DNA from: a virus
DNA: 26,521 nucleotides
Virus record (IMG/VR): IMGVR_UViG_3300025313_000465
Location: 1 to 26,521 of that record
Direction: 5' to 3' (one strand)
In this document: positions 1 to 15,699 of the stretch, piece by piece
Layout: every line of letters begins with the position of its first letter
Numbering within the stretch: position 1 is the stretch's first letter
Notes under the pieces: model-generated
Database searches by the model: none
Seen by the model: the letters and a program-made list of their open reading frames with translations, nothing else
Told to the model about the DNA's origin: nothing
Position numbers and translations under genes: made by a program

Positions 1-273
1 AATTTTTGAGGGATTTTTCTATGAAACCCGGTCTCCGCAATAAAGCCAGCGGCGAAAATACTAACAGATAATTGATTTCTGTCACAGACTCCGGACACCG
101 TCCGGAGCGTGCGAGACACGGAGTGCTAATCCGCCCCTCCGCACCGTAAGCCGTGACTAGCCATTTTGCTGAACTTACTGGACGTGGCAGTCCCAAGCAT
201 CTTCGCTGCGCTACCCTAACAGCGATGCCCTGCGTAAGTCAGCGGCGAAGGGGCGTACAAAGGAGCACTTACC
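1..273 (+). ncRNA. omega-RNA (HEARO-type) upstream of isrB, with probable guide at its 5' end
   Basis: This noncoding region directly precedes isrB, where IscB/IsrB families carry their guide RNA. It shows dense secondary structure. There is a perfect 8-bp hairpin (CTCCGGAC/GTCCGGAG, 89-107). A long-range helix pairs CGCCCCT (132-138) with AGGGGCG (249-255). ACTTAC (173-178) pairs with GTAAGT (234-239). Two small hairpins lie inside, at 180-193 and 204-224. The 10-base string cagcggcgaa occurs twice (about 50-59 and 240-249), which allows alternative pairings. Family knowledge: the RNA guides the nuclease, its guide lies at the extreme 5' end, and it is copied from the DNA flanking the element. 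Inference: bases 1-20 are the guide and the scaffold starts near the ATGA at 21. The true 5' end may lie before the window. I identify the class from context and folding by eye, not from a covariance model. Confidence 0.8.
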
Positions 274-1302
274 GTGCATTTCGTCCCAGTAGTAGATAAA
301 GAGCAAAAACCTCTCATGCCCACCACGGCTAATCGTGCAGCCACTTGGATAAAGTCAGGCAAGGCTACTCCCTTTTGGAAGCGGGGTATTTTCTGTGTCC
401 GCCTCAACCAAGAGCCTTCCGCTCGCCAACGCCAGGAAATAGCCGTAGGCATCGACCCTGGTAGCAAAAAAGAGGGCTTCACCGCGAAGTCCGAAAGCCA
501 CACCTACCTCAACCTGCAAGCCGATGCCGTCACTTGGGTAAAGGCTGCGGTAGAAACTCGTAGGAATCTGCGGCGCGCCCGCCGCAATCGGAACACTCCT
601 TGCCGCAAACCCCGTTTCAACCGCGCCAGGGGAGGACTATCTCCCAGCACCAAAGCCCGTTGGCAATGGAAACTTCGTCTCTGTAAATGGCTGTCCCAAA
701 TGTATCCTATCACGCAGTTCGTGGTGGAAGACATTTGTGCCAGAACCAAGAAAGGACAGCGACGGTGGAATGTTTCTTTCGGCCCCTTGGAAGTAGGTAA
801 GCATTGGTTCGAGGGAGAACTCAAGAAGTTAGCGCCTGTGCTTTTGGTTCCGGGCTACGAAACTTTCGAAATGCGACGCGCAGCAGGACTCAAGAAGAGC
901 AAGCAAAAAATGTCCGAAGTCTTTGCCGCGCACTGTGTAGATTCCTGGGTTCTCGCCAACCATTGGACAGGAGGGCACATCAAGCCGGATAGCGAACAGA
1001 TGCTTCTGATAACGCCCTTGCGCTTTCACCGCCGCCAACTCCACGTTCAGAACTTCAAAGACGGTAAGAGAAAACTCTACGGTGGAACCAGAAGTCAAGG
1101 TTTCAAAAGAGGTTCCCTGGTAAAGCACCCAAAGTATGGGCTTTGCTACATCGGGGGAACCCAAAAATCCAGAGTTAGCCTGCATAGTCTTCAGGACGGC
1201 AAGAGGCTGGGCCTCAATGCCAAGCCAGAGGACATTCAGTTCCTAACTCACAACACCTGGAGGCTGCGAGCACCACTCTCGGTTTCCGTCGCAGAAGAAT
1301 AG
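274..1302 (+). CDS. isrB: IsrB, RNA-guided RuvC nickase (IscB family without HNH)
   Basis: This 342-aa protein matches the IsrB plan, whose usual length is about 350 aa. The N-terminal PLMP motif is at 13-16. RuvC-I is GIDPG with D61, and an arginine-rich bridge helix spans about 95-118. RuvC-II has E152 (FVVEDICA). RuvC-III is HCVDSWVLA with H220 and D223. The C-terminal target-motif-binding region contains KRGSLVKHPKYGL. Only about 65 residues separate RuvC-II from RuvC-III and they hold no HNH domain, so this is IsrB rather than IscB. IsrB nicks the non-target DNA strand under guidance of an omega-RNA. All three acidic RuvC residues are present, so it looks active. It starts at GTG with AAGGAG 9 bases upstream. 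Its TAG stop directly abuts the ATG of the next gene. No TnpA transposase is in the window, so any movement would need help in trans. Confidence 0.93.
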   Translation: MHFVPVVDKEQKPLMPTTANRAATWIKSGKATPFWKRGIFCVRLNQEPSARQRQEIAVGIDPGSKKEGFTAKSESHTYLNLQADAVTWVKAAVETRRNLRRARRNRNTPCRKPRFNRARGGLSPSTKARWQWKLRLCKWLSQMYPITQFVVEDICARTKKGQRRWNVSFGPLEVGKHWFEGELKKLAPVLLVPGYETFEMRRAAGLKKSKQKMSEVFAAHCVDSWVLANHWTGGHIKPDSEQMLLITPLRFHRRQLHVQNFKDGKRKLYGGTRSQGFKRGSLVKHPKYGLCYIGGTQKSRVSLHSLQDGKRLGLNAKPEDIQFLTHNTWRLRAPLSVSVAEE

Positions 1303-1743
1303 ATGATTACCGATGAACAAGTTTCTCTATTAAATTATTGGCCTAAATTTGAACCGGCTATTCGTAACTGGTATAGCGAGGGAACGGCAGGACTTGGGGA
1401 CATCATCAAAACACAGCAAATCGCAATCGATTCTCTTCCGGATGCGTCTCCTCCAATAAACATTGGAACGGGAGCTGATGGATCAACGCCATACACAACT
1501 ATATCTGCAAACACCACTTTCACCTTGACAATCATGGTTTCCCAAGCCTTTTCAGCGGGAGCCACATTGACTATCGGATCAATTTCAGACCCTTCCCTGG
1601 TAGTCGGAATTAACGATTCAGACCTGACCATAGTAGGAAACTACGTCATTGGAGGTCAACTTTTTAATACCGACACAGAATTATTCACATATCTAAACAG
1701 TAACTTGTCGCCCACGGGCGCGATTACTATCATGAAGGCATAA
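1303..1743 (+). CDS. Putative phage fibre/appendage protein
   Basis: This 146-aa protein is rich in Thr, Ser, Ile and Gly and has a beta-strand-like composition, with no recognised catalytic motif. It opens a run of coupled fibre-like genes (1303-3591) and overlaps the next gene by TAATG at 1741-1745. Its ATG directly follows the isrB stop (TAGATG) and only a weak AGAAGAA precedes it, so translation probably depends on re-initiation after isrB. If the isrB element were absent, the GAGGGA at 8-13 would sit 7 bases before this ATG. Function is inferred only from the neighbours and composition. Confidence 0.6.
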   Translation: MITDEQVSLLNYWPKFEPAIRNWYSEGTAGLGDIIKTQQIAIDSLPDASPPINIGTGADGSTPYTTISANTTFTLTIMVSQAFSAGATLTIGSISDPSLVVGINDSDLTIVGNYVIGGQLFNTDTELFTYLNSNLSPTGAITIMKA

Positions 1744-2624
1744 TGGCAGACATCAAGAACTTTGGCATCAAAGGAGTTGGAAACGACGTACAACTCGGTA
1801 AATCAAATCCGAGGGTTATCGTTACAGGCTCAGATGTAACGTTTCGAAATTCAACAGATACAGCATATGTCAATGCTTCAGGTTTAGATCCCACAACAGC
1901 CCAGCATTTTGCAACTAAAGCTTATGTAGATGCGGTAGCCACTGGCCTAGATGTAAAGGGTTCAGTTCGAGTCAAGACAACCGCTAACGTTACTTTAGCC
2001 GGTGGAGCCCCTAATACGATAGATGGCATTTCTCTTGCTACTAACGATCGCATTTTAGTTGCCAATCAGACCACAGGATCACAGAATGGCATCTATACTG
2101 TAACGACTTTAGGTACTGGAGCAAACGGCACATGGACCAGAGCTACTGATGCAGATTCAAGCACCGAGGTTACGGCTGGCATGTTTACCTTTGTTGAAGA
2201 AGGGTCTCTTGCTGCTGACTCTGGTTGGGTATTAACTACAAACAATCCAATTACTCTAGGCACTACTGCTCTGTCGTTCTCGCAGTTCTCTTCAGGTGCA
2301 GGATCACAAGATCCGTTGTATAGGCAGCAGGCTTTGACTACAACTGCATCACAGAACATTGGAACATCAGTTCCCGCCAATGCTAAAGTGCAAGGTGTTA
2401 AACTAACTGTTTCTACTCCATATAGTGCAGGAGGTACTATTGCTATTGGAGATGGCACAAACACATACATGACAACGGCGGAAAATGATGCTCAAATCGC
2501 TGGAACATACGTTGTTGAGTTGCTAACCACTACTGTAGTCGCTGCTGTGCAATTGGTTGCGACTATTGGTGGTTCACCTGCTGCTGGCGTTGCAACTGTT
2601 CATGTAGATTACGTAATCAATTAA
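1743..2624 (+). CDS. Phage tail fibre-like structural protein
   Basis: The 293-aa protein begins with IKNFGIKGVGNDVQLGK, an N-terminal motif shared with the next gene product. It then carries FATKAYVDAVATGLDVKGSV and a beta-rich module around NTIDGISLATNDRILVANQT and GSQNGIYTV. These ATKAYVD and DRILVANQT...NGIYTV strings are familiar from fibres and other appendages of many tailed phages. The C-terminal third (about 195-293) is a separate Thr/Ala/Val-rich beta region that may bind a receptor or a partner. It is translationally coupled on both sides by TAATG. The exact place in the virion, tail or head fibre, cannot be decided here. Confidence 0.75.
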   Translation: MADIKNFGIKGVGNDVQLGKSNPRVIVTGSDVTFRNSTDTAYVNASGLDPTTAQHFATKAYVDAVATGLDVKGSVRVKTTANVTLAGGAPNTIDGISLATNDRILVANQTTGSQNGIYTVTTLGTGANGTWTRATDADSSTEVTAGMFTFVEEGSLAADSGWVLTTNNPITLGTTALSFSQFSSGAGSQDPLYRQQALTTTASQNIGTSVPANAKVQGVKLTVSTPYSAGGTIAIGDGTNTYMTTAENDAQIAGTYVVELLTTTVVAAVQLVATIGGSPAAGVATVHVDYVIN

Positions 2625-2953
2625 TGGAAATCAAGAATTTTGACATATCTGGAGTTAGTTCAAATCTGCAATTAGGTAAAGTAGGATTTCGTCTTAAAGT
2701 AAACGGAACCGGGATTGAAGCCAAAGACGCATCCGATTTGGAGCTGGTCAATTTAAGCATTCTTAGTCCTACTTCGGACAATCACGCCGCAACCCGAGCT
2801 TACGTTGATGCAGGAGATTCTATTGCCAAAACTTATGCTCCAGGAACCTTCACACTTGCAACCGAACAATTCGCGATATTTTCACGCCATCTAAAATTAA
2901 CAACCACTCAACGTGCAGAGATTCAAGGAACATCCACACTTAGGATTACGTAA
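2624..2953 (+). CDS. Short fibre-like paralogue of the upstream protein
   Basis: The 109-aa protein repeats the start of its upstream neighbour: IKNFDISGVSSNLQLGK against IKNFGIKGVGNDVQLGK, followed by AATRAYVDA against FATKAYVDA. It lacks the long beta module, so it looks like a shortened duplicate or an adaptor that shares the same attachment domain. It has TAATG overlaps at both ends and no clear ribosome site of its own, so it is probably translated by coupling. Confidence 0.6.
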   Translation: MEIKNFDISGVSSNLQLGKVGFRLKVNGTGIEAKDASDLELVNLSILSPTSDNHAATRAYVDAGDSIAKTYAPGTFTLATEQFAIFSRHLKLTTTQRAEIQGTSTLRIT

Positions 2954-3591
2954 TGGCCGACATACTACTTGATGAGCAAAGTACACCGGTAACCCCGCCT
3001 AGCGGATCTGGAGTAATCTATATAGATTCTACATCTAGTTCATTGCGGGTAGTTAATGATGCTGGAACTATTAGGGAACTTAGACCACCAATCTACAACT
3101 TCTCTACTGCTGCGCAAGTCCTTCCAGCAGTGGTACGAACTTACCTTATAGGGTCATCCCTTATTATTCCTGCGGAGAAGATGAAAATTGGATCATGTTT
3201 TAGATGGAAATTCAACATCACAAAAACGGCTGCGGGTACGGCAACTTCTGTCTATGATGTAGCCGTTGGTACTACGGGGACAACAGCCGACACGGCTAGA
3301 TTATTATTTACAAAACCAGCAGGTACAGCCGTCGTAGATACAGGTTTGATTGATATAAATGTGATTTGTCGTGGTCCATTATCAACATCAGGTGTGTTAG
3401 CAGGGAGCTTTAGACTAAATCACAATTTATCCACAACCGGCCATGCAACTACTCCTAGCGTAGTTGTAAGTACTATATCGGCGGCTTTTGATGTTACGGT
3501 CGCAAATCTAATCGTAGGCATCTGTGCCATAACGGGTACCTCAGATGCCATCACAATTCAAATGGTCCAGGCAGAATGCTGGAACATCTAA
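2953..3591 (+). CDS. Putative fibre/tip structural protein
   Basis: This 212-aa protein starts with a short module (GSGVIYIDSTSSSLRVVNDAGTIRELRPP) of a kind common at the front of phage fibre tip domains. A Thr/Ala/Val-rich predicted beta region from about 45 to the end follows. It is the last of the four coupled fibre-like genes, with AGGA before its start. The C-terminal position in the set and the composition suggest a distal or receptor-facing part, but that is inference. Confidence 0.6.
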   Translation: MADILLDEQSTPVTPPSGSGVIYIDSTSSSLRVVNDAGTIRELRPPIYNFSTAAQVLPAVVRTYLIGSSLIIPAEKMKIGSCFRWKFNITKTAAGTATSVYDVAVGTTGTTADTARLLFTKPAGTAVVDTGLIDINVICRGPLSTSGVLAGSFRLNHNLSTTGHATTPSVVVSTISAAFDVTVANLIVGICAITGTSDAITIQMVQAECWNI

Positions 3592-9758: not shown

Positions 9759-10667
9759 GTGCGTGGAACCGTTTATGTCATTCAAAATCAAAAAAATAAA
9801 AAAATCTATGTCGGGCAAACCAAATCGGGTCATCCACAAGAAAGATTTAATCAACATAAACGTTTATCACGAACAGGAAAAGGGAGTATTCTTCATGCTG
9901 CAATGCGTAAATACGGTGAAGATTCCTTTTTATTAATTGAAACTATAGATACTGAGTGGAGCAATCTAAACCCTCTTGAAAAAGAAATAATTCTAAAATA
10001 TAATTCAATTCAACCTAATGGGTATAATATTCTTGCTTGGGGCAGTATATCTAATTTAGATGAAGGCTGGTGGAAGGGTAAAGAACGGGCAGAATCCACT
10101 AAACAAAAAATGTCTAAAACTAAAAAAGAGCAATATGAAAATATGACTGAAGAGGACCAAGAAGCATTAAAGGAACAAGGCCGTCAGGCTTATTTAAATC
10201 TACCTGAAGAAACAAAAGAACGAATAAGAGAAGAACAATGTTCTTGGTGGTCTAATATGCCAGAAGAAGAAAAGAAAACGTTCATATCAGGTCAGGCTGC
10301 TAAACGAGTAGGCCATCTTGTATCCGAAACTACCAGGAAAAAAATATCCCTCTCTAATAAAGGCCGCATGCCATCAGAATTAGCCGTCCAACGCAGCCGA
10401 GAAACCAGGCTAGGCTCCCATCACACCGACGAAACGAAAGCCAAGATGTCTGCTGCTAAATTGGGCAAACTCAAATCAGAAGAAACTAAAGCTAATATGA
10501 CGCTCGCTCAGCGTAATAAAAGGACTCCTGAACAAATTGAGCGAGTATTAAAAATCAAAGAAATGTTAACTCAAAATATGAGTCTGAATAGTATTGCCGT
10601 CATTGTTGACTGTACGGCAGAATATGTTCGAAAGGTGCGAAAAGGTCAACGCGGCAGAGGAATATAA
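9759..10667 (+). CDS. GIY-YIG homing endonuclease with NUMOD3 motifs
   Basis: The 302-aa protein has a GIY-YIG catalytic domain at about 1-92: VYV at 5-7, YVG at 17-19, R29 and the LEKE glutamates at 73-76. Repeated NUMOD3-type DNA-binding motifs follow (STKQKMSKTKKEQ near 110; TRKKISLSNKGR near 198; TKAKMSAAKLGK and TKANMTLAQRNK near 225-245). The C-terminal helix-turn-helix is at about 262-300. It starts at GTG with AAAGGAG 6 bases upstream. The gene is clearly more AT-rich than the capsid gene, which suggests recent arrival. Its last 20 bases lie in the tRNA-Ser-like sequence. It looks intact. Confidence 0.93.
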   Translation: MRGTVYVIQNQKNKKIYVGQTKSGHPQERFNQHKRLSRTGKGSILHAAMRKYGEDSFLLIETIDTEWSNLNPLEKEIILKYNSIQPNGYNILAWGSISNLDEGWWKGKERAESTKQKMSKTKKEQYENMTEEDQEALKEQGRQAYLNLPEETKERIREEQCSWWSNMPEEEKKTFISGQAAKRVGHLVSETTRKKISLSNKGRMPSELAVQRSRETRLGSHHTDETKAKMSAAKLGKLKSEETKANMTLAQRNKRTPEQIERVLKIKEMLTQNMSLNSIAVIVDCTAEYVRKVRKGQRGRGI

Positions 10668-10762: not shown

Positions 10763-10838
10763 TGCGTAGTAGCATAATTGGTAATGTTTCTCCCTGTTAA
10801 GGAGCATTATGTAGGTTCGAATCCTACCTGCGCAGCCA
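10763..10838 (+). tRNA. tRNA-Asn(GUU), CCA encoded
   Basis: The acceptor TGCGTAG pairs with CTGCGCA (one G-T pair). The D arm is GCAT/ATGT with the GG loop. The anticodon loop CTGTTAA gives GTT, and the T arm is GTAGG TTCGAAT CCTAC. Discriminator G (10835) is followed by encoded CCA (10836-10838). The outermost anticodon-stem pair is a T-C mismatch. It looks functional. Confidence 0.92.
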
Positions 10839-10888: not shown

Positions 10889-10963
10889 GCCCCTCTAGCT
10901 CAAATGGTGGAGCAGCGCACTTGTAATGCGCGGGAGAGGGTTCGATTCCTTCGAGGGGCACCA
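10889..10963 (+). tRNA. tRNA-Thr(UGU), CCA encoded
   Basis: The acceptor GCCCCTC/GAGGGGC is perfect. D stem and loop are standard. The anticodon loop CTTGTAA gives TGT, with a GCGCA/TGCGC stem. The T loop is TTCGATT, followed by discriminator A and encoded CCA. A small hairpin, TGCCG/CGGCA, lies between this tRNA and the preceding one at about 10853-10866. Confidence 0.93.
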
Positions 10964-14196: not shown

Positions 14197-14646
14197 ATGC
14201 TATGCTCGAAGTGTAAACAGGACAAGCCAAAGACAGATTTTTATAGTAATCAGTCTAGAGTGACTGGTTTATCCCATTATTGCAAATCCTGTACTAGCGC
14301 AAGAGATAAATCTTACTACAATCGCAATAGCGTTGTCATCAAGCACAAGGAAATCGCTAGGGGAGCTGGTATCACCGTAGACCAGTATATTAATCTTAAG
14401 GCTACCTACGGAGACAGTTGCAATATCTGTGGCGTCACGACGAATGTTAATGATATAGCACTCGCATATGATCATAACCATACAACAGATAAGTTTAGAG
14501 GCTTTCCTTGCACAAACTGCAACAAGGGCATTGGTCACTTCAAAGACGATCCTGATTTACTAAGGAAAGCCATTAAATATCTTCAACGAGGGGATACATG
14601 GCAAAAAGCCTTGGCGAATTCAGAACAGCCATTAGACGTTATCTAA
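14197..14646 (+). CDS. Endonuclease VII-type (His-Me finger) endonuclease
   Basis: The 149-aa protein has an N-terminal zinc module (C3-C6, C29-C32). The nuclease core is at about 70-130 with CNIC (75-78), DHNH (92-95), RGFPC and CTNCNKGIG (105-113), and the usual ending DPDLLRKAIKYLQ. The T4-type catalytic Asp-His and the downstream Asn are present, so it looks active. This class includes Holliday-junction resolvases and freestanding homing nucleases; the location suggests the latter. Its last 49 bases overlap the next gene in another frame, and it contains that gene's GAGGGG. Confidence 0.88.
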   Translation: MLCSKCKQDKPKTDFYSNQSRVTGLSHYCKSCTSARDKSYYNRNSVVIKHKEIARGAGITVDQYINLKATYGDSCNICGVTTNVNDIALAYDHNHTTDKFRGFPCTNCNKGIGHFKDDPDLLRKAIKYLQRGDTWQKALANSEQPLDVI

Positions 14647-15281: not shown

Positions 15282-15699
15282 TGTTGACAGGGGACGAGAA
15301 GAAGGAACGAACGCGTCTTACACGATTCAAGTTTCGTGCTAAGAATCCCAATTACGATAAGGAATGGGCAAAGGCCAATCCTAAAAAGATTAAGGACGCA
15401 CAATCGAAATGGTATAAGGCCAATCCCGAAAAGTCGCCGTGAAGAACCGAAGAAGGCATTTGAAGGCAGTGTATGGTCTGACGGAAGTTGAATTCAATCA
15501 AATAATTGTATATCAACTTGGACGGTGTGTTATTTGTCAGGACACATTTATTGGTATGCCTCATGTATATCACAATCATTCCACAGGTAGAATACGTGGC
15601 CTTCTTTGTGCGCCATGCAATAAAGGCATTGGTTTACTCAGAGATGATCCAAATCTTATGCGTAAAGCTATTTATTATCTTGAGAAAGAAAGTGTGTAA
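15281..15699 (+). pseudogene. Frameshifted endonuclease VII-type gene
   Basis: Two halves of one nuclease lie in different frames. The first frame (15281-15442, 53 aa) has the W-KANPEKIK repeat of the family (KEWAKANPKKIKDAQSKWYK, then ANPEKSP) and stops. The second (from about 15430, 86 aa from GTG 15439) continues KNRRRHLKAVYGLTEVEFNQ, then CVIC, NHSTGRIRGLL, CAPCNKGIG and DPNLMRKAIYYLE. Adding one A in the AAAA run at 15429-15432 would join them. The catalytic DHNH is YHNH here, so the metal-binding Asp is lost as well. TAATG overlaps occur at both outer ends, with the adaptor and the nozzle gene. Confidence 0.82.

What the first reader, a model, noticed from the sequence alone, without database searches (positions are those of the whole stretch)
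1..1306. isrB/omega-RNA element sits exactly at a phage start codon; empty site, guide and target motif can be read off
Seen: ATGA occurs at 21-24 and at 1303-1306. The left copy is preceded by GAGGGA (8-13) with 7 bases to ATG. The right copy directly follows the isrB stop and begins the next virion gene, which now has no good ribosome site. Deleting the DNA between the ATGA copies puts GAGGGA 7 bases before that gene's ATG. Known: HEARO elements are reported next to ATGA or GTGA, and a studied IsrB uses an NTGA target-adjacent motif. Inferred: bases 1-20 are the guide, copied from the flank, and the empty phage allele (bases 1-20 followed by ATGATTACC) is the target. This would be an RNA-guided nickase element that homes into a virion gene start and spares the gene.
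Basis: partly seen in the sequence, partly recalled or inferred. Interest (0 to 1): 0.93.

Follow-up and report, generated by a model that had tools for sequence, protein, structure and literature searches.

The report
RNA-guided IsrB element before phage gene

Summary
The window is a phage fragment carrying a complete IsrB/omega-RNA (HEARO-type) element. The left end is wrong. ATGA 21-24 is an internal codon of an upstream phage gene whose isrB-less homologues continue past it, and the conserved omega-RNA begins at GTCA, base 81. The element is 81-1302 and the predicted guide is 61-80 (CTAACAGATAATTGATTTCT). The predicted empty junction is ...AATTGATTTCT|ATGATTACC, without target-site duplication. 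Three lines support the borders: 38 aligned relatives, a held-out covariance model (E 8e-21), and natural empty sites of relatives in cyanobacteria and Poribacteria. The empty allele of this phage itself was not found. The start-codon idea holds across the family: 20 of 33 relatives sit before an ORF start, against 8% of control RTGA sites. In many viral relatives isrB takes its stop codon from the TGA of the TAM, which also starts the next gene; none of 20 cellular copies does. Homing by nicking remains inferred.

The parts
1..71 (+). 3' end of a native 80-aa phage gene (whole gene at L002 2556-2798); stop TAA 69-71
   Evidence: Homologues without isrB in L011 and L036 align across codon ATG 21-23 to the end
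21..24 (+).
   Evidence: Internal Met codon; conserved residues P, G, L, R, K follow at 27-44
61..80 (+). Predicted omega-RNA guide, CTAACAGATAATTGATTTCT, copied from the left flank
   Evidence: 20 bases before the conserved scaffold start; 20-nt guide length from DtIsrB (PMC9581776)
81..272 (+). omega-RNA scaffold (HEARO-like); left end of the element at 81
   Evidence: Held-out covariance model, full length, E 7.9e-21; information jump at GTCA; fold z -3.2
89..107 (+). Left-end hairpin CTCCGGAC-ACC-GTCCGGAG
   Evidence: Folds as DNA and RNA; same hairpin position in relatives
274..1302 (+). isrB, 342 aa, GTG start, RuvC-only nuclease without HNH
   Evidence: Sequence match to DtIsrB 8dmb E 1.8e-37 over 4-328; RRXRR; RuvC residues D61, E152, H220, D223
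1264..1302 (+). Right end of the element inside the isrB frame: outer stem CTGCGA (1264-1269)/TCGCAG (1289-1294), GGTTTCC (1281-1287), spacer AAGAATAG (1295-1302); inner hairpin reduced
   Evidence: Same layout in relatives; single-strand fold weak, z -0.2
1303..1306 (+). ATGA: predicted TAM and start codon of the next gene, directly after the isrB stop
   Evidence: Sequence; paralogous copies and empty sites of relatives end at ATGA
1303..1743 (+). Target gene, 146 aa, in the head module between portal and capsid genes; function unknown
   Evidence: ORF; weak PHROG 4042; no relatives beyond near-identical contigs

Best explanation
Bases 81-1302 are one compact OMEGA/HEARO element: omega-RNA scaffold (81-272) plus isrB (274-1302), inserted without target-site duplication between the left flank ...CTAACAGATAATTGATTTCT (to base 80) and the start codon ATGA (1303). 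The omega-RNA takes its guide from the flank (61-80). IsrB would recognise an empty allele in which these bases are followed directly by ATGA and nick the non-target strand; the occupied allele is spared because the guide sequence is now followed by GTCA. Copying of the element into the nicked empty allele by repair or recombination during co-infection is inferred. The insertion leaves the next gene's coding sequence whole. isrB ends directly at that start codon (TAG|ATG), so the gene can probably be translated by coupling to isrB (inferred). Shown: the parts, the borders and the family's insertion rule. Inferred: expression, nicking, homing and coupling.
Against: No empty allele of this phage was found, and its target gene has no isrB-less relative. 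The window RNA does not reach Rfam HEARO. The Gln that reads the fourth TAM base in DtIsrB appears to be Leu here in the alignment (my placement), so the TAM of this protein is inferred from family insertion sites. The guide 61-80 lacks the ribosome-site motif seen at several relatives.
Confidence: 0.82

Rival explanations
1. One reading: the element lies between the two ATGA copies (21-1302), the guide is 1-20, and GAGGGA is the displaced ribosome site of the next gene.
For: Exact ATGA pair; GAGGGA at good spacing.
Against: 21-71 encodes the conserved end of a phage gene; conservation and the covariance model start at 81; relatives show no target-site duplication.
Confidence: 0.03
2. The element moves as an IS200/IS605-type transposon by a TnpA supplied in trans, and IsrB only restores or keeps it at sites it has left; it is not a homing element.
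For: Family members have IS605-like hairpin ends and many copies per cellular genome; insertion before a fixed motif without duplication is IS605-like.
Against: No TnpA on the 67-kb contig (TnpA was found on 3 of the 14 viral records searched); the inner right-end hairpin of this copy is reduced.
Confidence: 0.35
3. This copy is a stranded relic, no longer mobile, kept only because it does little harm before the start codon.
For: Reduced right end; only near-identical contigs carry this copy.
Against: Open reading frame with intact RuvC residues and a strongly folded omega-RNA (z -3.2).
Confidence: 0.25

Closest known systems
IsrB of Desulfovirgula thermocuniculi with its omega-RNA (PDB 8dmb, PMC9581776)
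   Same: Protein similar over its full length, RuvC only, large upstream RNA with a 5' guide, NTGA motif after the target
   Different: About 35 percent identity class; shorter scaffold (192 against about 262 nt); Gln that reads the fourth TAM base apparently not kept; phage-borne; activity untested
HEARO RNA (Rfam RF02033)
   Same: Same start (GTCA) and element layout, RNA upstream of the ORF, insertion before RTGA
   Different: The window RNA is below any reportable Rfam score; only the session's own model finds it
IS200/IS605-type insertion sequences
   Same: Hairpin ends, no target-site duplication, insertion next to a fixed tetranucleotide
   Different: No TnpA found on the contig; inner right-end hairpin reduced
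Phage homing endonucleases and inteins
   Same: Would spread by cutting empty alleles; this phage carries several candidates
   Different: Target set by an RNA guide taken from the flank instead of protein-DNA recognition; homing not shown

Membership tests
IsrB (OMEGA nickase) | PLMP and RuvC domains similar to IsrB over the full length, about 350 aa | tested here: met
   8dmb E 1.8e-37 over residues 4-328; 342 aa
IsrB (OMEGA nickase) | No HNH domain | tested here: met
   Only RRXRR found by Pfam; full collinear alignment to HNH-less IsrB
IsrB (OMEGA nickase) | RuvC catalytic residues | tested here: met
   D61, E152, H220, D223 present and conserved
IsrB (OMEGA nickase) | Structured omega-RNA directly upstream | tested here: met
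   81-272, E 7.9e-21 with held-out model; covariation in 23 of 27 pairs of the family
IsrB (OMEGA nickase) | NTGA motif after the target | tested here: met
   ATGA at 1303-1306; family insertions precede RTGA; specificity of this protein not assayed
IsrB (OMEGA nickase) | RNA-guided nicking of the non-target strand | not testable with these tools
   Needs protein and DNA
HEARO RNA (RF02033) | Reaches the Rfam gathering score | tested here: not met
   No hit in the window, even at E 10; relative L138 just passes
IS200/IS605 transposon | TnpA transposase | tested here: not met
   PF01797 not found on G001 (67 kb) or G002; contigs are fragments
IS200/IS605 transposon | Insertion without target-site duplication at a fixed motif | tested here: met
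   Empty sites of relatives, not of the window copy itself
Homing element | Spread into empty alleles by cutting them | not testable with these tools
   No empty allele of this phage found; a phage cross is needed

The most novel reading that the evidence does not exclude
Phage IsrB elements form a translationally coupled variant: they insert between the region before a gene (which becomes the guide, often with the ribosome site) and its start codon (the TAM), and the isrB frame is extended through the right end so that the TGA of the target's own NTGA serves as isrB stop while NTG restarts translation of the target gene. They would be RNA-guided, start-codon-homing elements that use one tetranucleotide as TAM, stop and start, and so spare the virion genes they enter.
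Probability: 0.35. Interest if true: 0.78.

Novelty: new member of a known kind. Interest (0 to 1): 0.6.

Why it matters
It gives a testable guide, TAM and empty site for a phage-borne IsrB, and corrects the guide that a nicking assay would have used. More widely, the family survey shows that these elements sit directly before start codons far more often than chance, and that viral copies often borrow their stop codon from the TAM. That would explain how an RNA-guided mobile element can live inside packed phage operons without destroying the gene it enters, and what NTGA specificity may be good for.

Tried and rejected
A fusion of upstream and downstream ORFs at the two ATGA copies (210 aa, in frame) was considered: no relative spans it, and the upstream gene homologues end on their own. 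An empty junction TAATG at base 70/71 was considered first and dropped once the conserved start at 81 was seen. Exact search for the empty allele of this phage in viral contigs: none. Downstream gene of L042 used to find an empty phage: only itself. Rfam HEARO in the window: none. I first thought the right end of the window element was lost; a 6-bp outer stem with GGTTTCC is kept, so only the inner hairpin is reduced. First left ends of L047 and L059 were corrected with the covariance model. Two older papers on HEARO and ISC elements are not in the library, so the published ATGA/GTGA statement could not be checked here.

Full report
WHAT WAS CHECKED. Two near-identical contigs, L002 (67 kb) and L003, carry the missing left flank. 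ATGA occurs 111 times in the window, once per 239 bases, so a second copy near the left end carries little weight by itself.

THE PROTEIN. ORF 274-1302 (342 aa) matches IsrB of Desulfovirgula thermocuniculi (PDB 8dmb) over residues 4-328, E 1.8e-37, and Pfam RRXRR. It has no HNH domain, and the RuvC residues D61, E152, H220 and D223 are conserved. This is IsrB by sequence; activity is not tested.

Relatives of this phage were fetched through the major capsid protein (30 loci). Two of them, L011 and L036, lack isrB and carry a homologue of the small gene that continues past the same codon with PGLRSK. The aligned residues P, G, L, R and K are encoded by window 27-44. So 21-71 is native phage sequence, ATGA 21-24 is a Met codon, and GAGGGA is coding sequence.

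WHERE THE ELEMENT STARTS. IsrB loci were collected from viral and cellular genomes. In 38 upstream regions the flank is close to random (0.0-0.33 bits per column) until a sharp jump to 1.8 bits at a conserved GTCA, window base 81. A covariance model built from 21 relatives without the window finds the window at 81-272, full length, E 7.9e-21, and nowhere else in it. The curated Rfam HEARO model starts at the same GTCA in relative L138. The family consensus fold has 27 pairs, 23 with two-sided changes. The window RNA folds better than all of 200 shuffles, z -3.2. The window RNA itself does not reach Rfam HEARO.

WHERE IT ENDS. Right ends of the family show a stem around GGTTTCC or similar, a short spacer and (A/G)TGA. 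The window has CTGCGA...GGTTTCCG-TCGCAG-AAGAATAG|ATGA, the same outer stem and spacer with a reduced inner hairpin.

PROOF OF THE INSERTION RULE IN RELATIVES. Copies at different sites share DNA from GTCA to ATGA and no further: exactly in L200/L201, within a few chance bases in L195/L196 and L205/L206. Flanks joined as [left up to GTCA) + [ATGA...] were searched as one 300-base query. For L127 (Brasilonema) seven cyanobacterial genomes hold the uninterrupted empty site at 84-98%. For L132 (Poribacteria; flanks look like the nuoB end and nuoC start, my reading) four genomes of the same genus do, at 77-90%. At the joint there is no duplication and at most one base of difference. In phages, the gene behind the L252 element has 25 isrB-less homologous loci; 23 have ATG at that place, and L326 shows upstream and downstream genes meeting there. 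Several of these contigs are redundant.

PREDICTION FOR THE WINDOW. Element 81-1302 (1,222 bp), guide 61-80 (CTAACAGATAATTGATTTCT), TAM ATGA 1303-1306, empty junction ...GATAATTGATTTCT|ATGATTACCG. In the occupied allele the guide sequence is followed by GTCA, not NTGA, so it should be spared. In the nearest isrB-less relatives a four-gene block (1303-3591) is missing altogether, so they cannot serve as empty sites.

START CODONS. In 33 loci with both borders defined, 20 have an ORF of at least 70 codons starting at the TAM with a nearby in-frame stop before it, against 103 of 1,225 other (A/G)TGA sites of the same DNA (odds ratio 17, p 3e-13; viral 9 of 13, cellular 11 of 20). The loci are related and right ends were partly chosen by eye, so the p-value is optimistic. 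Several left flanks carry a ribosome-site-like motif at a fitting distance from the TAM (L042 AAGGAG, L043 GAGGGA, L048 GAGG). The window is not one of these: 61-80 has no such motif.

A VIRAL PECULIARITY. In cellular copies isrB stops 9-123 bases before the TAM (20 of 20). In viral copies it often runs through the right end: of 38 non-redundant viral loci with a recognisable right end, 12 end with the TGA of the TAM itself (two of these, L248 and L258, are doubtful because another ATGA follows) and 4 abut it, the window among them (TAG|ATGA). Six further loci without a recognisable right end (L006, L059, L249, L257, L280, L289) also stop on NTGA with an ORF of 63 codons or more starting at that NTG. 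In the first, smaller set, viral against cellular is 8 of 13 against 0 of 20, p 9e-5, again without correction for relatedness. The simplest reading is translational coupling that keeps the target gene expressed; this is inference.

HOW IT PROBABLY WORKS. [quoted passage not shown] By analogy this IsrB would nick empty alleles of related phages within 61-80, and repair would copy the element. No TnpA lies on the 67-kb contig and the inner right-end hairpin is reduced, so spread by nicking and recombination is attractive but not shown; movement by a TnpA in trans remains open.

STANDING. The object is a new member of a known kind: HEARO-type nucleases in viral genomes are published (PMC9755519). 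The correction of guide and borders is firm. The coupled start-stop arrangement of viral copies was not found described in the papers I could search and is the most interesting lead.

Noticed in passing
L002 10-2163 (portal-like gene left of the window): The gene is interrupted by an intein-like insert with LAGLIDADG motifs; the portal of relatives such as L011 is continuous there.
   Followed up: partly
window 9759-10667, 14197-14646, 15439-15699; L002 2166-2555: Several free-standing homing-type nuclease genes (GIY-YIG with NUMOD3, three Endonuclease VII type) lie between structural genes of the same phage.
   Followed up: no
window 1303-3591: A four-gene block between the 80-aa gene and the 256-aa gene is absent in relatives L011 and L036, where the two conserved genes are adjacent.
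   Followed up: partly
L252 4086 and L255 4037: Two different phages carry isrB elements at the start codon of homologous genes, with unlike guides; the L255 target gene also appears to hold an intein.
   Followed up: partly
L120, L125, L127, right ends: Cyanobacterial elements end with AGGAGGTTTT or GAGGTTTT directly before the ATGA, as if the element brings its own ribosome site for the downstream gene.
   Followed up: no
L281, L286, L293 and L285 (contigs 3300023212_000371, 3300023213_000432): Several isrB copies at different places in one large viral contig, a rare case of multi-copy isrB within a virus record.
   Followed up: no
L047 2711-2780: The left end of the element is duplicated in tandem, giving two possible omega-RNA starts.
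   Followed up: no
window 10763-10835 and 10889-10960: Two tRNA genes in the structural gene region.
   Followed up: no
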